Below are positions 1,014 through 30,860 of a DNA stretch of 30,860 nucleotides, piece by piece. The first letter of the stretch is position 1, and each line of letters starts with the position of its first letter. The notes beneath the pieces were generated by a model, which saw nothing but the letters and a program-made list of their open reading frames with translations, ran no database searches and was not told where the DNA came from. The stretch is taken from positions 1-30,860 of IMG/VR virus record IMGVR_UViG_3300035183_000666; one strand, written 5' to 3'. Source of the stretch: a virus. Made by a program: the position numbers and the translations under genes.

Positions 1014-2170
1014 CACAGTGGGTACAGGCGGCCGTTGTGGGCTTCCCAGCCGGGCGGCGGGGTCGGGTGTGTCCACTGTGCTTTCCACAGCTTCGCGTCG
1101 GTGAAATCCGCACCGTCAACTGTCGCGTCCCGCAGATCGGCGCATGTGAGATCGGCGTCCCGCAGATCGCAACCGGAGAGATCGCTACGGTTGAGGTTCG
1201 CGGAGGTAAGCGCCGCGCCCCGAAGATCAGCGGCGGCGACCTCGCACCCCGACAGGTCCACGCCGGTGAGATCAGCCCCACGCAAATCCGCGCCGAACAA
1301 CCTGCAGTCGTCGAACGTGGCCGCAACCAGGTCGACACCAGAGAGCACGGCGCACGTCAGGTTGACTTCGGTGAACGAGGCGTTCTCGCTGAACAGTGCG
1401 TGGCGCAGATCAGCATGGTGGAGGTTGGTTTTGTAGAGCACGGCGTCGCGCAGATCGGCATACTGCATGTGTGCGCCGACGAGGCTTGTGTGGTGCAGAA
1501 CGGTGTAGCGCATGTCGGCGCCGGTCAGGTCCGTGTCCTGCATCCTGGCCCACGACAGGTTCGATCCGTTGAGCTGAGCTTCACGCATGTCCGCGCCCCT
1601 AAGGTCGGCGCTGGACAGGGTGCAGCGGTGGATGACCGCTCGGCGTAGGTCGGCGCACCCCAAATCCAGGTTCGGGAAGGACTCGTCCTGCAAGGTGATC
1701 CCGGCGAGGACCAGCGGGCCAGTGAAACCCCTGACACCCTGTTTCCACGCCGTGACGCCTTCCAAGACACACAGCGCGGAGACCGCGGTGGCCCTGTACC
1801 CTCGTGCAACTACTGGGCCGCGTCCCGCCAACACGGGCAGGATTCCCGCCCCCGAGACAGCGGCCAACACCACCTCGGTCGGCACATCCGCCGTGTCAAG
1901 CAAGCCAGTCACGCCCGCGCGCACCAAGGCCTCCCGGTCCTCGGGGGTGGTGTCGGGTGCGTCGTTGCCGCTTACCACGATCTTGCAGAGCAACGGATGC
2001 GCGCACTCCGGTTCGTCACTCCACGGTTCTTCTGCGATCCATGACAGCGCGGACACCGCGCACGCGGTGCCTTTCCGCGGTTCACCCACCCACCCCGCGA
2101 TCAGCTCGAACCGTTTGAGCGCCTCCTCGACGCGATCGCGTGTGACCAGCCGCTCGACGTACCTGTCCAC
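1013..2170 (-). CDS. Pentapeptide-repeat protein with extra N-terminal domain
   Basis: A 385-aa protein. Residues from about 155 to 375 are tandem pentapeptide repeats of the A(D/N)LXX type (for example SADLRGADM, GADLRGADLTGVDLSG, CADLRDATVDGADF), which fold as a right-handed square beta-helix. The first 150 residues are non-repetitive and I do not recognise them. Some pentapeptide proteins mimic DNA and inhibit or protect gyrase (MfpA and Qnr types), but this one has a sizeable N-terminal domain and no diagnostic Qnr loop that I can identify, so the target is open. The GTG start at 2170 is preceded by GGAGG seven bases away. The gene sits between a small hypothetical and DUF488 with overlapping junctions. 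Confidence 0.88.
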   Translation of the reverse strand: MDRYVERLVTRDRVEEALKRFELIAGWVGEPRKGTACAVSALSWIAEEPWSDEPECAHPLLCKIVVSGNDAPDTTPEDREALVRAGVTGLLDTADVPTEVVLAAVSGAGILPVLAGRGPVVARGYRATAVSALCVLEGVTAWKQGVRGFTGPLVLAGITLQDESFPNLDLGCADLRRAVIHRCTLSSADLRGADMREAQLNGSNLSWARMQDTDLTGADMRYTVLHHTSLVGAHMQYADLRDAVLYKTNLHHADLRHALFSENASFTEVNLTCAVLSGVDLVAATFDDCRLFGADLRGADLTGVDLSGCEVAAADLRGAALTSANLNRSDLSGCDLRDADLTCADLRDATVDGADFTDAKLWKAQWTHPTPPPGWEAHNGRLYPL

Positions 2171-2545: not shown

Positions 2546-2638
2546 TCACCTCCGGAGTTCGCAGCGGATCGTGTCGTCCTGGTCGTCGCTGGAGAAGTCG
2601 CACCATTGGCGGATGAACTCCCGTGGGTGCGGGTTCAT
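2546..2638 (-). CDS. Small 30-aa ORF coupled to the replication protein
   Basis: A short ORF encoding MNPHPREFIRQWCDFSSDDQ and ten more residues. Its ATG overlaps the TGA of the replication-initiator-like gene as ATGA, and the next gene starts one base after its stop. Without it there would be a 90-base hole in an otherwise gapless operon. That placement is the main reason to call it; the sequence itself matches nothing I know. Confidence 0.5.
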   Translation of the reverse strand: MNPHPREFIRQWCDFSSDDQDDTIRCELRR

Positions 2639-3297
2639 CGATCGCTCCTCAGCTGGAGCTCTGCTCGGATGCTGCGGGCTGCCGAAGCGTTCGCTGCCGG
2701 ATCGAGCAGATCCGACGCTGAATCCGCCAGAAATTCCGCCAGGGAATCGGTTGAAGAAGGCAAAGGGGGGTTAGGGGGGTTATCTGTATCTGTATCTGTG
2801 TCTGTATCTGGGGCGTTCCGATCCCGTTTCGCGGAACGCGCGTGAAACGTTTCGCGAAACGTTTCATTGCCGTTCCATGCAACGTTGCGTGAAACGTCGA
2901 TGTTCGAGCGTTGACGACGCGTTTGCACAGGCTCAACCGACTGGTTGTCCACACGTTGCTCGCGGTGCTTCCGCACCCGCAGCGACGAGAAATCCGAGTC
3001 GAACTGGCGTCGCTCCCAACCCGGAATCGACCAGGTCACAGCGTCGGACTCGATCAAACCGAGCCGGCACAGCGCCTCGAGGCCAGCGGTCACGCGCTTC
3101 CGAGGAAGCGCCGCAGCGTCCACGATGTCATCCACACTCAGCGGGATCGAGTCGGTCAACATCAACCGGCCCGGCACGGGCGATTTTCTCGCCAGCACGA
3201 GCACCACGACGAACAGCCACCGATGGTCCGGATCGAGCCGTGCTAAACGGCGATCATCGATGATCTCGACGTACAAACGGAGCCACGGGAACCTCAT
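2635..3297 (-). CDS. Replication initiator / replisome organizer-like protein (winged helix N-terminus)
   Basis: A 220-aa protein. Residues 1 to about 125 (FPWLRLYVEIIDDRRLARLD, then SVDDIVDAAALPRKRVTAGLEAL and the IPGWERRQFDSD end) resemble the winged-helix N-terminal domain of phage replisome organizers of the O/DnaD type, which bind origin repeats and load the host helicase. The second half is a low-complexity linker, including an Asp-Thr repeat (DTDTDTDTD) and a Pro/Asn run, followed by a short Ser/Ala-rich tail. As in lambda O, repeated sequences resembling an origin lie inside the gene, in the linker-coding part (2826-2894), with a second block just upstream (3325-3393). ATG at 3297 overlaps the preceding 37-aa ORF stop as ATGA. 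No DnaC-like ATPase is adjacent. Initiator role inferred from domain resemblance and iterons. Confidence 0.7.
   Translation of the reverse strand: MRFPWLRLYVEIIDDRRLARLDPDHRWLFVVVLVLARKSPVPGRLMLTDSIPLSVDDIVDAAALPRKRVTAGLEALCRLGLIESDAVTWSIPGWERRQFDSDFSSLRVRKHREQRVDNQSVEPVQTRRQRSNIDVSRNVAWNGNETFRETFHARSAKRDRNAPDTDTDTDTDNPPNPPLPSSTDSLAEFLADSASDLLDPAANASAARSIRAELQLRSDR
2781..2810 (+). repeat. Five-unit TATCTG hexanucleotide repeat within the initiator gene
   Basis: Five in-frame copies of TATCTG (fourth copy TGTCTG) encode the alternating Asp-Thr run of the initiator linker. A neighbouring G-rich stretch (2765-2780) encodes the Asn-Pro-Pro motif. Because the unit is six bases, copy-number change would alter linker length without a frameshift. 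Confidence 0.85.
2826..2894 (+). repeat. Iteron block inside the initiator gene (three 23-bp units)
   Basis: Three tandem 23-bp units begin at 2826, 2849 and 2872. Each starts GTT(T/C)C and carries a central palindromic core: GAAACGTTTC at 2856-2865, GCAACGTTGC at 2879-2888, and a degenerate core in the first. A further perfect GAAACGTTTC at 2844-2853 spans the first and second units. The period and core match the block at 3325-3393. Iterons of about 20 bp next to an initiator gene are typical of theta-type origins. Confidence 0.75.
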
Positions 3298-3407
3298 CGC
3301 GGCCTCGTTTCTCGGTCAAAACACACCGTGCAGAACGTTTCGTGGCCGTTCCGTGAAACGTTTCGTGGGTGTTCCACGAAACGTTTCATGGGTGTTGGGG
3401 TTGTCAT
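3294..3407 (-). CDS. Small 37-aa ORF spanning the upstream iterons
   Basis: A 37-codon ORF starting MTTPTPMKRFVEHPRNVSRN and ending with a CxxC-containing tail (FCTVCFDRETRPR). Its ATG overlaps the WhiB stop (ATGA) and its stop overlaps the initiator start (ATGA), so it fills the gap exactly. The iteron block lies within it. It may be a real peptide, or only a way to carry ribosomes through the origin to the initiator gene. No known family. Confidence 0.45.
   Translation of the reverse strand: MTTPTPMKRFVEHPRNVSRNGHETFCTVCFDRETRPR
3325..3393 (+). repeat. Iteron block upstream of the initiator gene (three tandem 23-bp units)
   Basis: Units at 3325-3347, 3348-3370 and 3371-3393 are in perfect 23-bp register. 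The last two differ at only three positions. Each has the core (G)AAACGTTTC: AGAACGTTTC at 3332, GAAACGTTTC at 3355 and at 3378, flanked by GTTCC on the left and TGG on the right. With the 2826-2894 block this makes six units about 500 bp apart. The likely role is initiator binding at the origin; autoregulation of the initiator gene is an alternative. Confidence 0.8.
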
Positions 3408-3706
3408 GCGCTCATCCTCCTCGTGTCGATCCTCGACCGCTGTCGAGGTGTCAGCCCGCCCCACATGCCCTCCGGGATGCGCTCGACGACCGCCTCGATG
3501 AGGCAGTCCTCGATCACGGGGCAACGCGCACACACCACCCGAGGTGTCTCCCAGTCGACCGGTTTCGAGCGGCGGGGAAGCGGGAACCACAAGCTGGTGT
3601 TGTGACCACGGCACGCGGCCTGGTTACGCCAACCCGGTGTCGGTGTCGCCCGCCGCGGTGGATGGTCGATCAGCGTGCGCGGATCAACCAGTGCTTCGCA
3701 GGTCAT
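3404..3706 (-). CDS. whiB-like: WhiB-family iron-sulfur transcription factor
   Basis: A 100-aa protein with the four Fe-S cysteines of the WhiB family: Cys32 in AACRG, then Cys59, Cys62 and Cys68 in VCARCPVIEDC. The family turn motif follows as EGMWGGLTPRQR at 79-90, then a basic C-terminus. WhiB proteins hold a 4Fe-4S cluster and bind the host primary sigma factor to alter promoter choice. Several actinophages carry one, and phage copies can block the essential host WhiB. ATG at 3706 has GGAGG six bases upstream and overlaps the end of the radical SAM gene by 23 bases. Coupling to that gene suggests joint expression, and both proteins need Fe-S clusters. Confidence 0.93.
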   Translation of the reverse strand: MTCEALVDPRTLIDHPPRRATPTPGWRNQAACRGHNTSLWFPLPRRSKPVDWETPRVVCARCPVIEDCLIEAVVERIPEGMWGGLTPRQRSRIDTRRMSA

Positions 3707-5201
3707 GTCTGTCCTCCATCAATCTGCGCTGAACCCCGACCCAGGAGCGGGCCAGGAACTCCTTCGAGCGCCACGTGACGATGAAGTCCCATGGCAGCGC
3801 CACATCGACTGGTAGCTCATCCCACGTCCCTCCTGTGATTGCTCTCGCCTCGTCGAGTCCCACTCGTCGACGAGCGAGCGCGTCGAACAGGTCGACGGCA
3901 CGCTCGTCGGCACGCGAGATCAGGGTGCAGAGCCGTGCCATCTGGTCGGTCCTGCCGACAACGTGGCGGACCTGGAGGTGACTGCAGTGACGCAGATGCG
4001 CCAGGATGAAAGCAGCCCGCCGCGCACCGCCTCCACATGGAGCCCACTGCATTGGTGTGCCCGGCAGCGGCTGAAACGGCTGCCAATGCAACGACAGGTT
4101 CCTCTTCCTCGAGCGGTTCGCGCGTTGCCTCGCGTCGATCTCGGCGACAACCGCCCCGAGCGCGGGGTAATCAATGATCCTCTCAGTCGGGAGCCCGGCA
4201 ATGAGATGCCATGCGGCGCGACCAACAGATGAATCCTCGACCTGACCGAAGAAGCGGACCGTGTCATCGATCAACCGCTCGTCAGTGAGATAGCCCTTGC
4301 CGACTGCCCTGCGCAGCCGGTAGGACACGCCCTCGACACCGAAGGCGTAGCGCTTCTGACCGGGAATCGTCTGATCAGGGTTCTCCAGCAGCGAATCCAG
4401 ACGGCCGGTCCAACCTGAATCGAAACCGCCGTGCTCGCGAAGCGCGGCTCTGATCTCGCTGATCCCCGAGTGAGACTCGGCGTCACCGGCCTGCAGGTGC
4501 ACGAGCTTCGGTGACCGTCTGATCTCGGCAACCACCGCTTCCGCTGGGTTCTCTCGCAGTGGTGTGCGCCAACCAAGCGAGCAGAAGTGGCAGTTGTACC
4601 TGCAGCCTCTCGCGATCTCGATCCGCCGGCGGTTGTCCAGGTTGACGCTGATCTCGTGTCGCAGTGTCACTGTGATGTCACTCGCGACAGCTTGCGTGAT
4701 CGGCGGCGCCGACGACGATGGGCCGTGGACGCTCGGCACCCACACCCCCTCGATGGCAGCAGCGGCACTCAAGAACCGCTCCGTGTTCCCGTGTGCGTCC
4801 CACAGCGCCAACAGCTGCGGCAGTGGATCTTCAGCGTCTCCGATCACGACAAGGTCGGCGATCGCGCCGAACGGCGCCGGATTGTGTGCGCCAGAGCCAC
4901 CGAGCCACACCAGTGGCCACGACCCAACCGGTCGACGATCGGCGGACCGGATCGGCATCCGCCACTCGATGAATCGCTCACCGATGTGGACCGCGCAGCG
5001 CGAATCGAGAACCGAGATGAACACGGCGTCGAAGGCTGTGACCGGGTCGGCTGTTTCCTCCTCGGCAACGAGGTCCAGACCGTGCGGTCCTCCGATCGCT
5101 GCGACGATCGCCAACGGGAATACGAGGCCGTGCGGAACGCGCACACCCTCTTGCTGCTCGAGCATCCGCCACGCGTGGATGGATGACGCAAGTGCTCTCA
5201 C
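3684..5201 (-). CDS. Radical SAM protein with B12-binding-like N-terminal domain, coupled to the cas module
   Basis: A 505-aa protein. Residues 1 to about 160 resemble a cobalamin-binding-type domain, including LGGSGAHNPAPFGAIADLVV then IGDAED (about 100-125), the usual 'GG...P.....D.vv.GE.E' pattern. The radical SAM core follows with C200-x3-C204-x2-C207 (GCRYNCHFC), which ligates the 4Fe-4S cluster that cleaves SAM. Further core motifs are FGVEGVSYRLRRAVGKGYLT and LIAGLPTE, then the PLPGTPMQW motif seen in B12-binding radical SAM proteins. The N-terminal domain has no clear DxHxxG, so cobalamin may not actually bind. The chosen start is GTG 5201, which forms a GTGA overlap with csf3 and has GAGG upstream; GTG 5225 is possible. 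It sits where type IV systems usually carry dinG or cysH. Substrate unknown. Confidence 0.85.
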   Translation of the reverse strand: MRALASSIHAWRMLEQQEGVRVPHGLVFPLAIVAAIGGPHGLDLVAEEETADPVTAFDAVFISVLDSRCAVHIGERFIEWRMPIRSADRRPVGSWPLVWLGGSGAHNPAPFGAIADLVVIGDAEDPLPQLLALWDAHGNTERFLSAAAAIEGVWVPSVHGPSSSAPPITQAVASDITVTLRHEISVNLDNRRRIEIARGCRYNCHFCSLGWRTPLRENPAEAVVAEIRRSPKLVHLQAGDAESHSGISEIRAALREHGGFDSGWTGRLDSLLENPDQTIPGQKRYAFGVEGVSYRLRRAVGKGYLTDERLIDDTVRFFGQVEDSSVGRAAWHLIAGLPTERIIDYPALGAVVAEIDARQRANRSRKRNLSLHWQPFQPLPGTPMQWAPCGGGARRAAFILAHLRHCSHLQVRHVVGRTDQMARLCTLISRADERAVDLFDALARRRVGLDEARAITGGTWDELPVDVALPWDFIVTWRSKEFLARSWVGVQRRLMEDRHDLRSTG

Positions 5202-6010
5202 CTTGCGACCTCGAGACGCGTCCACGGTGCGATGACCTCCGGGAGGATGCGAGCGAAGCCGCCGCTGCCGGGGTCACGTTGCGGTGCACGGAAATATGGC
5301 GGCCGGATCGGTGCGCGTGTGATGTCGCAGTCGGGAACGCCGAGGGACGGCGCGCACCGCGCAGGGATCGGTCGGCCGATCATCCCATCCCGCCAGATCA
5401 CCTGCAGAGGATCCGGATCGCCGATGTCGATCACATCCCAGTCGAGGACGAGTCCCTCTCCCATCGACCGGTTCCGGCCGAGCTGACGAACGCCGCTGAG
5501 CACATCAGAGATCGCCGCCGGGTCACCAATAGCAACCCATTCCAGCGCGGCGCACACCGTTACCACTTCGGGTGTGCGCCACGCGCGGTAGCGGCCGATC
5601 TTGCCGTCCAGAGCGGATGTCGGGACTCGCACACCGAGATCGATGGCCTCCATTCCGTTGAACCGCTTGTGCCACCAGCGCACATCCTCGGCGGCGGCAC
5701 CGACCGGTGCCGCGCACGACGCGAGATGCCACCATTGCGCTCCCGTGTCGATCCGCAGGTGCTTCCACCCCGATTTCTTGCAAACCACGATCGGGATGTT
5801 CTCGGCGTGATGATCAACGGCCGCGCCGTAGCGGACATCGAGCCGCTGGCGGCGCATCGCGGCGGCAAGCACAGCGTCGAGAGGCAACGGCCAATCGTGG
5901 TGCATGAGCACGCCTGACTGCAGACGTGCGATCACGCGCACTGTCCGGGACTCACTGATCAGCGGACCAACGAAGCCACGGAGCGCCCGACTCTTGGATG
6001 CAGTTGTCAT
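5198..6010 (-). CDS. csf3: Type IV Cas5-like protein (Csf3)
   Basis: A 270-aa RAMP-type protein. The N-terminal region reads VRVIARLQSGVLMHHDWPLP followed by LDAVLAAAM (about 24-52), matching the 'l....pl.lD.lLa.a' opening of Csf3/Cas5 proteins. A glycine-rich loop, GVRQLGRNRSMGEGLVL (173-189), matches the conserved RAMP loop near the Csf3 C-terminal half. In type IV complexes Csf3 caps the 5' handle end of the guide RNA beside Csf1. ATG at 6010 overlaps the csf2 stop as ATGA; a GTG nine bases upstream is less likely. It is the last cas gene of the cluster and is coupled to the radical SAM gene by GTGA. Confidence 0.82.
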   Translation of the reverse strand: MTTASKSRALRGFVGPLISESRTVRVIARLQSGVLMHHDWPLPLDAVLAAAMRRQRLDVRYGAAVDHHAENIPIVVCKKSGWKHLRIDTGAQWWHLASCAAPVGAAAEDVRWWHKRFNGMEAIDLGVRVPTSALDGKIGRYRAWRTPEVVTVCAALEWVAIGDPAAISDVLSGVRQLGRNRSMGEGLVLDWDVIDIGDPDPLQVIWRDGMIGRPIPARCAPSLGVPDCDITRAPIRPPYFRAPQRDPGSGGFARILPEVIAPWTRLEVAR

Positions 6011-6936
6011 GTGAGCCACGACAGCGCGTCGAGGATCCGGTCAGCGTGATCGCCGTGATGCGACCTCAGTTGCTGGTGCCACTCGGGTGCGAGCTCCGAC
6101 CCATGGGTTGCGACCATCGAGGAGGTCTGCACCCACTGAGAACAGTCGAGCTGCAGGCGGCCGTGACCAGTCGACGACCGCCCACCGATGTGCGCACCAG
6201 CCGCGGCCCACGCATTCAAGGCTGCACGGAGCTGCGCGACGCAGAGATCGTCTGCTCCTTCGAGCGCCATCCACCAATGGAACCGGGTGCCCGCAGCGAG
6301 CGTCTCGACGCCGTAGCGCATCTGCTGTGCCGTGTCGCGTTCGATGTCGGACACCTCAGGTGTGCTGGCCGAGTTGGCACCAGTGGTGAGCACACCAGCG
6401 ATGCGCTCGTTCAGCATTGGGCGCTTCGCGTCATCTCGACGGCTGAACTCCTCGAGCTGCAGCAGCTCCCAGATCGTCACCGGTCGAGCCGGGACGATGT
6501 CGCTTGGCACGATGTGCGCGGTTTCCACGCAGATCGGAATAAGCTTCCCGACTCGGAGCCGGCCTTCGATGATGCGCCCGCCACCAGACGCACCGAACAG
6601 ATTCACGTGTGGCACAAGCCGGCGAAGCTCCGCGAGTTGCGTCGCTGTGAGCACCGAAGTCGATCCCGCCTTCGCAAGTTGCCCACCAGACCACAGCACG
6701 TCGAACATCTGCAGCGACAGTTCTGGCTGCCCGAGCATTTGCCAGGTCAGTTCGGCGGACATATCACGCAGGATGCCGCGCAATGAGTTCCCGGAGATCA
6801 CCGGTATTTCGGCGATTGTGCCATCAGGTTGGACGATTTTCTCGCGGCGAAAAAACTGGGTTGTGCCTGCTGATTCGCCGCCATGCGAGATAGATGAGAG
6901 TGCTATAGCGGCGCCTTCGATACGGTGATCATTCAT
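6007..6936 (-). CDS. csf2: Type IV Cas7-like backbone protein (Csf2)
   Basis: A 309-aa protein with strong Csf2/Cas7 signatures. ISGNSLRGILRD at 47-58 is the RAMP motif 'ISGNSvRGilRD'; FDVLWSGGQL at 78-87; VNLFGASGGG at 111-120; then RLRVGKLIPIC and VETAHIVP at 126-144. A glycine-rich segment near residue 250 (GGRSSTGHGRL) closes the fold. Csf2 subunits polymerise along the guide RNA and form the backbone of the type IV ribonucleoprotein. ATG at 6936 has GGAGG nine bases upstream, and it overlaps the cas11-like gene by eight bases. This is the best supported gene of the module. Confidence 0.92.
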   Translation of the reverse strand: MNDHRIEGAAIALSSISHGGESAGTTQFFRREKIVQPDGTIAEIPVISGNSLRGILRDMSAELTWQMLGQPELSLQMFDVLWSGGQLAKAGSTSVLTATQLAELRRLVPHVNLFGASGGGRIIEGRLRVGKLIPICVETAHIVPSDIVPARPVTIWELLQLEEFSRRDDAKRPMLNERIAGVLTTGANSASTPEVSDIERDTAQQMRYGVETLAAGTRFHWWMALEGADDLCVAQLRAALNAWAAAGAHIGGRSSTGHGRLQLDCSQWVQTSSMVATHGSELAPEWHQQLRSHHGDHADRILDALSWLT

Positions 6937-28129: not shown

Positions 28130-28266
28130 CGGCGCACCTCGAGCTCAAACGCTTTCACCATGAGGAACACACCGGCCGCGATCAACGCGACCGGTATTAA
28201 CCACATCGCTAAACCGGCGACAACGAGCGCTGCGCCAACCGTTTCGAGGACCGTGCTTTTCGTCAA
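28126..28266 (-). CDS. Small 46-aa membrane protein with TTG start, between terL and portal
   Basis: An ORF too short to stand out. It starts TTG at 28266, overlapping the terminase stop as TTGA, with GGGAGG nine bases upstream, and ends in a GTGA overlap with portal. The product (LTKSTVLETVGAALVVAGLA, MWLIPVALIAAGVFLMVKAF) is two close hydrophobic helices and a charged tail. Both coupled junctions make it credible. Function unknown. Confidence 0.6.
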   Translation of the reverse strand: MTKSTVLETVGAALVVAGLAMWLIPVALIAAGVFLMVKAFELEVRR

Positions 28267-29897
28267 AAGACGTGCACCTCCCGGCGACGGACGCTGCGTG
28301 TCTGCTCGGCCTCAGCGACACCGATGATGAGCCCGACACCGCCGTCGATCCGCATCATTTCCTCGTGCCCTCGGCGGCGCGCTACTGCCTGCGGGTCGAT
28401 CGGTTTCACCGGCACCGGTCCCCATGTCGTCTGTTTCGCAGCCATGTTGAGCACATGTGACGTTAGCACTTGGTCTCCTGAATGCGTGAGAGACCCCTCG
28501 CGCAATGCTGCCAGAAACCGATCCGTCGCGGCTGCCATTCGTTTCAGCACCCGCGTGTCGAACTCCAGCACACGCGGCTCTCCCTGCGCGTCGGCACCGT
28601 ACAACTCCGACCAGTCCTCGATGTCGGTTTGCCAGCCCCACGGGTCGCACACGAGGCGTCTCACGTTGAAACGGGCGAACATGTCAGCGACAGCGTCATG
28701 CACTTCTCGGCGCGGTACCCGCCACTCGAATCCGGCATGCTGTGGCCTGATCCAGGCGCGCAATAGCATCGCATGGCGAGGTTCGGCGACCGTGACAACA
28801 CCGAGAACCGATGCGTCACGGTTCTGCGACCCGTCGAAAAACCCGACGACCTCGGCGCCTGGCTCGATACGACGCTCGGGGGCCGCCAGCTCCGCCCAAC
28901 GATTCGGGTCGACCAGCCGGCCCTCAATGCGTTCCGGCAGATTGCACCACAGCCTTTTCCACATCTGCGGACTCGTTGACGGGCGATGCCATGTCGCGAC
29001 GACGCCCTCCACGTCCGTGAATTCGATGTACGGGCCACGCGCCTCTATCAGCGCTGCCCGCCGCCCTTCATCAGTCGTGAAATCCGAATCAGGTGACGCC
29101 TGCCGGTGGAAGAACGAGAACGCCGGATCTTCAACCGCTCCCGACGCGATCTCCGCGGCGTGCGCAAAAGCGTCTTCCGCGACCGATCCCTCACCCGGAC
29201 CGAACATGGTCGTCGTCGACAGCGACCAACCGTCGCCGACGCCCTTGACAACATTCTGGGTCATCGTCTCCACCGCCTCCCGCAGACGAGGCGTCACAAA
29301 CCGGTGCGTCTCATCGAAATGCTGGAAAGTCGTGCGCGCACCATCACGAGCATTCGGCGACCCCGAAAGCGGTTTTATCGACCCGCGACCGTCACGCCGC
29401 TTCGTTTCCTGAAGGCCAGGATCGAAATCCGCCGCCGCGGCGCACCGATCTTCCGTCAAGATCGCGTACACCGCGCCATACGCGAGGTCCTCCGTCTGTT
29501 CCTCGGTGTAGGCGATCATCGGGATGTACGGGTCCCGCAACGGTCGACCAACCGGCTCCCACACACCGCCACGTTTCCGCCATCCATCGCACCGCACAGG
29601 CGCCTCCGGGTGCGCCTCGGTGATCGCTACAAACGCCGCAAGCTCCGTTTTCGCGGTCCCTTTCGGGAGCGACAAATGGCAATCCCGGAACCGGCGGCGA
29701 CCAGCCAATGGATGGCCCCGCGGGTACACCTCATACCAGCGGCACAACAACCAGATCTGCTCGTCGAGCAGCTGAATGTCGTCCCCGCGTTTCTCGCCAG
29801 GCCCGTGCACGAGCATCGCCTCGATGAACTCCGCGACCTGCAACCCGAGCGTCGGCCACCGCTCGCCGGGCTCGTCACCAGGCACCTGGAGGATCAC
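28263..29897 (-). CDS. terL: Terminase large subunit
   Basis: A 544-aa protein. The ATPase domain has a Walker A-like SLPKGTAKTELAAF at 76-89 and, later, a DE pair (FQHFDETHRF) at the Walker B position. The nuclease domain shows VVGFFDGSQNRDASVLG and RRLVCDPWGWQTDI, the Asp residues of the RNase H-like site. It ends REVHVF. It packages DNA into the prohead with the small subunit. GTG 29897 overlaps the small subunit stop (GTGA); the longer in-frame start at 29978 would lie inside terS. Confidence 0.93.
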   Translation of the reverse strand: MILQVPGDEPGERWPTLGLQVAEFIEAMLVHGPGEKRGDDIQLLDEQIWLLCRWYEVYPRGHPLAGRRRFRDCHLSLPKGTAKTELAAFVAITEAHPEAPVRCDGWRKRGGVWEPVGRPLRDPYIPMIAYTEEQTEDLAYGAVYAILTEDRCAAAADFDPGLQETKRRDGRGSIKPLSGSPNARDGARTTFQHFDETHRFVTPRLREAVETMTQNVVKGVGDGWSLSTTTMFGPGEGSVAEDAFAHAAEIASGAVEDPAFSFFHRQASPDSDFTTDEGRRAALIEARGPYIEFTDVEGVVATWHRPSTSPQMWKRLWCNLPERIEGRLVDPNRWAELAAPERRIEPGAEVVGFFDGSQNRDASVLGVVTVAEPRHAMLLRAWIRPQHAGFEWRVPRREVHDAVADMFARFNVRRLVCDPWGWQTDIEDWSELYGADAQGEPRVLEFDTRVLKRMAAATDRFLAALREGSLTHSGDQVLTSHVLNMAAKQTTWGPVPVKPIDPQAVARRRGHEEMMRIDGGVGLIIGVAEAEQTRSVRRREVHVF

Positions 29898-30328
29898 GAC
29901 GCCGGCCCCGACGGCACCGCAGTCAACCGCCGAACACGACGGTGACCAGCGGCCTCGTCCCGCTCCTTCAAGTTCCAACGCAGCGACAGCATGTCCCGAG
30001 GTGTCGCACCGAACGATTGCTCATTCAACCTGATCTCAGCCAACAGGGACGTGCTCGGCGACCGATGAAACTGGTCCACGAGACGGGCCAGCATCAGCAG
30101 ACGCTGCCAGCCGGTCCTCGTGATCCGCCGAGCCTGCGGCGACTCTCGCCACGACTCGAACCACTCGCGGGTTTCGTCACGGAACACCACCGACCGTTTC
30201 CCGTCGCGGTACCCGCGCGGCAGCTCAGGTGGATCGAACGCCTCCAGTTCGAGTTCGATCCATTCGCCACGGTGGTTCTTTCGCTGATTGATCGAGTTCG
30301 GATTTGGAGCGAACCCTCGTCCGGCCAT
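29894..30328 (-). CDS. terS: Terminase small subunit-like protein
   Basis: A 144-aa protein starting MAGRGFAPNPNSINQRKNHR. The middle (RRITRTGWQRLLMLARLVDQ) and SLLAEIRLNEQSFGATPRDM, LSLRWNLKE match the small terminase proteins found upstream of this TerL type in actinophages. It recognises the packaging site. GGGAGG lies five bases before the ATG, and the repeat region 30350-30605 directly upstream is a plausible binding site. Confidence 0.82.
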   Translation of the reverse strand: MAGRGFAPNPNSINQRKNHRGEWIELELEAFDPPELPRGYRDGKRSVVFRDETREWFESWRESPQARRITRTGWQRLLMLARLVDQFHRSPSTSLLAEIRLNEQSFGATPRDMLSLRWNLKERDEAAGHRRVRRLTAVPSGPAS

Positions 30329-30349
30329 CCAGACCTCCCAGAGTCATGC

Positions 30350-30363
30350 GCACAAAATTGTGC
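30350..30363 (+). repeat. Short inverted repeat upstream of terS
   Basis: GCACAA and TTGTGC flank AA, a 6-2-6 palindrome 21 bases upstream of the terS start codon. It is AT-rich compared with its surroundings. It might be an operator for the late genes or part of the packaging site. The stretch 30329-30585 shows no convincing gene and no clear sigma-70 promoter. Confidence 0.45.
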
Positions 30364-30440
30364 CTGCGGCGGGGTGCTGGCGGGTGATTTCGCTCAGAGT
30401 TTTTTCGTCGGTGCAGGTCGACCAGATAGGGACTGCATTC

Positions 30441-30605
30441 GAGCGTCGCGAGCGTCGCGAGCGTTGTACCAGGGTTTTTGTCGCGACGCTTCGGTGGTTC
30501 CGCGACGCTCGGAGCGTCGCGAGCGTCGCGGAAGCGTCGCGACCGGTGAACGCGAAACCGCAGGTCACTGGCGTGCGCTAACGCTCTAACGCTCGCGACG
30601 CTTCG
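30441..30605 (+). repeat. GAGCGTCGC repeat cluster upstream of the terminase genes
   Basis: GAGCGTCGC occurs in tandem at 30441 and 30450 (a third partial copy at 30459) and again at 30512 and 30521. CGCGACGCTC (30501-30510) and GAGCGTCGCG (30512-30521) form a 10-1-10 palindrome. TCGCGACGCTTCG is repeated at 30481 and 30593, with its inverted copy at 30531-30542. A tandem TAACGCTC at 30579 and 30587 overlaps the end of the SWIM gene. Candidates are a terminase binding/cos region, a regulator array or a recombination hot spot. Confidence 0.75.
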
Positions 30606-30852
30606 ATGCGGTATCTGTCTGGTTCGGTTTGACGGTGACTAACCGCAGCGCGCAGAGGTGGGCGCAGCGGTCGGTGCGGGCCGGGCAGTCACACCACCAT
30701 CCGCGAGTCGGGTCGTAGCCGAGGTGGTAGTGGTCGCCGTCGCCTCGGCACCACGCGTCGATGTGCCGCCGGCCACGGTCAACCGCCAGGACGATGAGTC
30801 GTCCTTCGGTGAGGTAGCGGCGCGCTTTCGTTTCCGCGTTGTCACGGGGCAT
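30586..30852 (-). CDS. SWIM-type zinc finger protein
   Basis: An 88-aa protein. The C-terminal half has WWCDCPARTDRCAHLCAL, a CxC...CxH SWIM zinc-finger pattern, preceded by AWCRGDGDHYHLGYDPTRGW. The N-terminal half (AETKARRYLTEGRLIVLAVD) is a short helix-strand unit. Similar small proteins recur in actinophages. SWIM domains bind nucleic acid or protein partners. It precedes the repeat-rich non-coding region and terS. Its ATG at 30852 lies eight bases from the window edge, so the upstream neighbour is unknown. Confidence 0.72.
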   Translation of the reverse strand: MPRDNAETKARRYLTEGRLIVLAVDRGRRHIDAWCRGDGDHYHLGYDPTRGWWCDCPARTDRCAHLCALRLVTVKPNQTDTASKRRER

Positions 30853-30860
30853 TGGGATCG

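What the first reader, a model, noticed from the sequence alone, without database searches (positions are those of the whole stretch)
30329..30605. Dense GAGCGTCGC repeats and nested palindromes before the terminase genes
About 160 bases hold at least eight copies of GCGTCGC or its complement, a 10-1-10 palindrome and a 13-mer repeated in both orientations. They do not code for a credible gene. The place next to terS suggests a packaging initiation region or a late regulatory array.
Basis: partly seen in the sequence, partly recalled or inferred. Interest (0 to 1): 0.55.

Follow-up and report, generated by a model that had tools for sequence, protein, structure and literature searches.

The report
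Hairpin array beside predicted packaging site
Next to a phage's packaging genes lies a dense cluster of mirrored repeats that folds into one long hairpin, but the likely signal for cutting and packaging the DNA is a separate, ordinary site between that cluster and the first packaging gene.

Summary
The repeats are real: 8 copies of GCGTCGC/complement in about 165 nt (500 simulations never exceeded 4), a 10-1-10 palindrome, and a 13-mer in both orientations. The stretch 30421-30623 folds as one long hairpin (z about -9). The neighbours are terS (Pfam Terminase_7) and terL. Related phages place the packaging signal outside the array. Isolates with defined virion ends, and 17 of 44 related contigs that begin at a cos-like end, share a layout: cut, A/T tract at about +5 to +11, then GTACGGGTCTGG near +16. 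A matrix built from them puts its best match in the whole window at 30364 (minus strand), 36 nt before terS and 57 nt from the array. This agrees with the HK97 small-terminase site at +15 to +29. So a cos site is predicted at 30365|30364, and the array lies on its right-end side. The array is not conserved: relatives' right ends fold far less strongly, and no other copy was found. I read it as a lineage-specific foldback repeat in the non-coding right-end spacer, perhaps terminator-like, and not the TerS site. Virion ends were not measured.

The parts
30421..30623 (.). GCGTCGC foldback array: 203 nt, imperfect 35-nt outer inverted repeats, nested palindromes; 3-nt TCG on both flanks
30421..30455 (+). 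left outer arm of the fold-back
   Evidence: I1, 80% complementary to 30589-30623
30589..30623 (+). right outer arm of the fold-back; overlaps the 3' end of the small upstream ORF
30480..30543 (.). inner nested hairpin (13-mer pair, 10-1-10 palindrome, 14-nt arms)
30552..30567 (-). TGACCTGCGGTTTCGC, variant of a motif (TGACCTGCGGAAACGC) found near the right ends of many phages
30364..30365 (-). predicted cos cleavage position (left virion end would begin at 30364)
   Evidence: best matrix hit in the window; prediction only
30365..30378 (-). AGCACCCCGCCGCA, predicted cohesive-end box (relatives: GACCGCCGGGGA)
   Evidence: weak, rank 821 of 61694 when scored alone
30354..30359 (-). AATTTT, A/T tract at +6 to +11 of the predicted left end
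30336..30350 (-). predicted small-terminase site, +15 to +29 (contains TCTGGG)
   Evidence: position compared with HK97
29894..30328 (-). small terminase gene (144 aa, Terminase_7)
28263..29978 (-). large terminase gene
30586..30852 (-). small ORF with a cysteine/histidine pattern resembling a SWIM zinc finger (recalled, no family match); no relatives found

Best explanation
The stretch is the cos region of a tailed phage with HK97-type head genes. Working model: TerS binds the conserved block just inside the left end (30336-30350), TerL cuts at about 30365|30364, and packaging runs into the head genes. The GCGTCGC array is a separate, lineage-specific foldback repeat in the non-coding spacer at the right end of the packaged molecule, 57-259 nt from the cut. 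It probably grew by duplication and palindrome correction of a short GCGTCGC palindrome. If it acts at all, it most likely acts as a hairpin that insulates the last right-end gene from the late operon when cos is joined. Shown: the repeats, the predicted fold, the gene identities, the cos layout in relatives. Inferred: the cut position in this phage, the TerS site, the origin of the array and any action of the hairpin.
For: Cos layout in relatives: motif GTACGGGTCTGG or a close variant begins 15 nt after the left end in 5 of 8 phage records examined (Apricot, DrSierra, Estave1, P318, Marvin), 17 nt in two sister phages (Brujita, Xula), about 29 nt in ReT1v. P318's last 11 nt equal its published overhang CGCCGGGGGCC. 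17 of 44 related contigs with a nearby contig edge begin at such an end, against 0.17% of internal positions (the pattern was written after seeing them). TACG[GC][GA]TC lies within 1100 nt upstream of terL in 29 of 86 loci, background 0.02 per 1100 nt. The matrix ranks minus 30364 first in the window with 27 nt and with 41 nt. HK97 TerS needs +15 to +29. Array not conserved: right-end folding z -5.6 in the window, +0.97 to -3.28 in 21 relatives, -0.95 to +0.24 in 4 isolates.
Against: The margin is small: second hit 12.6 against 14.0 and 12.0 against 12.4. With contig starts alone as training, 30364 ranks only 16th. In register it lacks the TAC core of GTACGGG. Divergent true sites also score badly when left out (Brujita -30.8, L008 -8.4, DrSierra -3.7), so the matrix is not decisive. 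The second contig of this phage starts at 30446 inside the array, which could be a real end and not an assembly break. In P318 and Marvin the cos lies 10-16 kb from terS, so nearness to terS is no proof. Nothing tests the hairpin's action.
Confidence: 0.55

Rival explanations
1. The array itself is the packaging signal: TerS, or a partner nuclease, reads the GCGTCGC repeats, and the cut lies in or beside them (for example at 30446).
For: Position beside terS; contig L006 of the same phage starts at 30446 inside the array, 13 nt before GTCCCTATCTGG, which matches 8 of 12 letters of GTACGGGTCTGG.
Against: The 30446 position is not among the about 400 best-scoring sites of either matrix; relatives with defined ends have no such array; repeats are a usual cause of contig breaks (general knowledge).
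Confidence: 0.15
2. The array is a selected, strong bidirectional transcription terminator or insulator between the right-end genes and the late operon, without a classic T-run.
For: Very stable predicted fold on either strand; sits between the stop of the last right-end ORF and terS; hairpin clusters are reported as terminators (PMC8355165, abstract and section list seen).
Against: The consensus scan finds no terminator in the array itself; its 2 hits (mean 0.8 in shuffles) are at 30379-30395 on the plus strand. Not conserved in relatives. It overlaps the end of an ORF.
Confidence: 0.3
3. A small non-autonomous mobile or REP/MITE-like element inserted next to cos.
For: 35-nt imperfect outer inverted repeats, same 3 nt (TCG) on both flanks, nested palindromes.
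Against: No second copy: none in the window, none in phages or plasmids beyond short chance-like matches, none in viral contigs for a degenerate outer-arm pattern; the 19-mer occurs singly in 2 of 296 and 2 of 201 bacterial genomes of two phyla in contexts with no array. A 3-nt match is 1 in 64 by chance.
Confidence: 0.15
4. An operator or origin: binding sites for a phage regulator or replication protein.
For: Short repeated units in both orientations.
Against: A better origin candidate exists: 23-nt iteron-like repeats at 2825-2891 and 3334-3390 in and before a gene matching Phage_rep_org_N. Spacing in the array is irregular.
Confidence: 0.08

Closest known systems
3'-overhang cos regions of actinobacterial siphophages (Brujita, Apricot, DrSierra, Estave1, P318)
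   Same: Right-end gene, non-coding spacer, cut, conserved block at about +16 (5 of 8 records examined begin it exactly 15 nt in), usually then terS-terL
   Different: Window block is diverged (GCATGACTCTGG); the HNH gene before cos in Brujita, Apricot, DrSierra and Estave1 is here an ORF without relatives; the C-run/G-run palindrome about 37-58 nt before the cut (16 of 26 relatives by my reading) is absent, with only GGTCGACC there; a large foldback array is added
HK97 cos and small terminase
   Same: TerS site at +15 to +29 from the cut (PMC11331095, section 5 read), the same position as the conserved block
   Different: No credible sequence match of this TerS to solved structures (best E 0.54); HK97's A-tract lies at about +24 to +29 (passages), here the A/T tract lies before the block
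REP/MITE-like foldback repeats of bacteria (recalled class)
   Same: Palindromic, GC-rich, non-coding, outer inverted repeats
   Different: Single copy; no relatives found

Membership tests
cos region of an HK97-like actinophage | adjacent terS and terL | tested here: met
cos region of an HK97-like actinophage | conserved TerS block at about +16 with upstream A/T tract | tested here: inconclusive
   top match in the window but diverged and with a small margin
cos region of an HK97-like actinophage | virion DNA ends with a short 3' overhang at this site | not testable with these tools
   needs virion DNA or reads
cos region of an HK97-like actinophage | HNH endonuclease gene beside the terminase genes | tested here: inconclusive
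   the one ORF in the 0.5 kb available upstream matches no family; the record ends at 30860
TerS-binding repeat array (pac/cosB type) | array conserved beside terS in relatives | tested here: not met
MITE/REP element | multiple copies | tested here: not met
   within the collections searched
MITE/REP element | terminal inverted repeats and target duplication | tested here: inconclusive
   35-nt arms, 80%; 3-nt TCG flanks
intrinsic terminator | stable hairpin followed by T-run | tested here: not met
   hairpin yes, no consensus terminator in the array

The most novel reading that the evidence does not exclude
The array is a new kind of right-end packaging element: a large foldback that takes the place of the C-run/G-run palindrome found about 50 nt before the cut in many actinophages and helps terminase stop or cut at the end of packaging.
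Probability: 0.1. Interest if true: 0.55.

Novelty: new member of a known kind. Interest (0 to 1): 0.3.

Why it matters
It shows that a conspicuous repeat array beside terS need not be the packaging signal, and that cos can be predicted in uncultivated phages from relatives whose contigs start at virion ends. The shared layout (palindrome near -50, cut, A/T tract, GTACGGGTCTGG near +16), which fits the HK97 TerS site, is directly testable in isolated actinophages.

Tried and rejected
Host-repeat idea: the 19-mer GAGCGTCGCGAGCGTCGCG is not a genomic repeat in the sampled phyla; its 10 loci in viral contigs show no array around them. Other copies of the array: none convincing. Rfam: no match. 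tRNA: none. Other cos candidates were considered and ranked lower: 30410 (CGACGAAAAAACTCTGAGCG, like L005's contig start; rank 329 or 58) and the L006 contig start 30446. Closer relatives by portal: best 41% apart from L006, with too little upstream sequence to use. Relatives of the small upstream ORF: none. A folding scan of the whole window (12 shuffles each, noisy) has 30501 as the most extreme of 307 windows. Training rows dropped: L085 as a copy of L083, ReT1v because its motif is at about +29; L008 and L067 were kept though they fit badly. 57 of 86 loci lacked the exact core; some are contigs that begin too late or carry variants.

Papers: PMC11331095 (passages and section 5), PMC6893835 and PMC13313380 (passages), PMC8355165 (abstract and section list). 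Searches of little or no use: (listings only, apart from the papers named). No paper held TGACCTGCGGAAAC.

Full report
Observation. The array is real. Eight GCGTCGC/GCGACGC copies lie at 30443-30601; 500 Markov simulations never put more than 4 within 170 nt. Allowing any 7-mer to be the motif, 2 of 20 simulations did as well, so the count alone is only suggestive and it is the inverted arrangement that is striking. The stretch folds on itself: outer arms 30421-30455/30589-30623 (35 nt, 80%), inner arms of 13-18 nt, one long hairpin with z -8.9 (DNA) and -9.5 (RNA), 0 of 200 shuffles as good.

Setting. The window is a 30,860-base virus record. On the minus strand terS (Terminase_7, E 1.3e-20) overlaps terL, followed by portal, protease and capsid. 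PHROGs calls the terS family 'minor tail protein', a label also on several phage records, which I take to be a misnomer. Upstream of the array is an 88-aa ORF with no relatives found; its last codons lie in the right outer arm of the fold-back.

Relatives. 80 viral contigs (110 matched, the best 80 kept) and 14 genome loci encode TerL relatives; apart from L006 (the same phage, 100%) the best is 49%. L006 matches the window over 6,076 bases with 9 differences, all near its far end, and starts at 30446 in the array. Two kinds of evidence show where such phages are cut. First, phage records: the block GTACGGGTCTGG or a variant begins 15 nt after the left end in Apricot, DrSierra, Estave1, P318 and Marvin, 17 nt in Brujita and Xula, about 29 nt in ReT1v. 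That these records start at virion ends is convention (recalled) except for P318, whose published overhang CGCCGGGGGCC is the last 11 nt of its record. VWB had no such block in the 701 nt around terS, and GAL1 was not scanned. Second, contig edges: 17 of 44 related contigs begin with N4, G or C, an A/T tract, and a TACG- or TGCA-like core near +15, against 58 of 34,379 internal positions (the pattern was written after reading the starts).

Predicted cos. A matrix from 36 such ends (16 contig starts, 3 isolates, 17 internal sites) ranks GGCACAATTTTGTGCGCATGACTCTGG at minus 30364 first among all window positions on both strands (score 14.0; next 12.6). A 41-nt matrix from 25 sites ranks it first again (12.4; next 12.0). 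The upstream half alone ranks 821 of 61,694. With contig starts alone it is 16th. It lies 36 nt before the terS start; a similarly short distance to an ATG is seen in contigs such as L012 and L021. In HK97 the small terminase needs +15 to +29 from the cut (PMC11331095), the same place as the conserved block. I therefore predict a cut at 30365|30364 and a TerS site at 30336-30350, with moderate confidence.

The array. It lies at 57-259 nt on the right-end side of the predicted cut. In 16 of 26 relatives (my reading) a C-run/G-run palindrome such as ACCCCCNGGGGGT lies about 37-58 nt before the cut; singly these rarely beat shuffles, but the position recurs. The window has only GGTCGACC there (0.7 of shuffles as good). 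Right-end folding in 21 relatives (+0.97 to -3.28) and 4 isolates (-0.95 to +0.24) is weaker than in the window (-5.6). The array contains TGACCTGCGGTTTCGC (30552-30567), a variant of CTGACCTGCGGAAACGC, which occurs near the right ends of many phage contigs; Estave1 has three variants around its cos, one with TTT. No other copy of the array was found in the collections searched.

Conclusion. The array is best read as a lineage-specific foldback in the right-end spacer; terminator-like action is the likeliest function, and no function is quite possible. Virion ends and binding were not measured.

Noticed in passing
window 2825-2891 and 3334-3390: 23-nt iteron-like repeats with the palindrome GAAACGTTTC in and before ORF 2635-3297 (minus), which matches Phage_rep_org_N (E 6e-5); a likely replication origin, laid out like that of lambda O (recalled).
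   Followed up: partly
L123-L242 and window 30552-30567: The 17-mer GCGTTTCCGCAGGTCAG occurs in at least 120 viral-contig stretches (scan stopped at its limit); in about 22 distinct sequences its complement lies within 160 nt of the sequence's right end, often 37-83 nt. No paper found with TGACCTGCGGAAAC. Function unknown to me.
   Followed up: partly
first bases of L005, L010, L012, L021, L036, L044, L059, L061, L069, L070, L071, L073, L076, L078, L083, L084, L085: IMG/VR contigs that start at a cos-like virion end: contig edges can be used to map cos in uncultivated phages.
   Followed up: partly
window 2781-2810: TATCTG repeated five times, just beside the iteron-like repeats.
   Followed up: no
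window 6010-6936 (minus): Protein of PHROG 22746 (E 2e-86, unknown function) with a sub-threshold match to the RAMP superfamily.
   Followed up: no
window 3687-5225 and 1016-2170 (minus): A radical-SAM protein and a pentapeptide-repeat protein in the same phage record.
   Followed up: no
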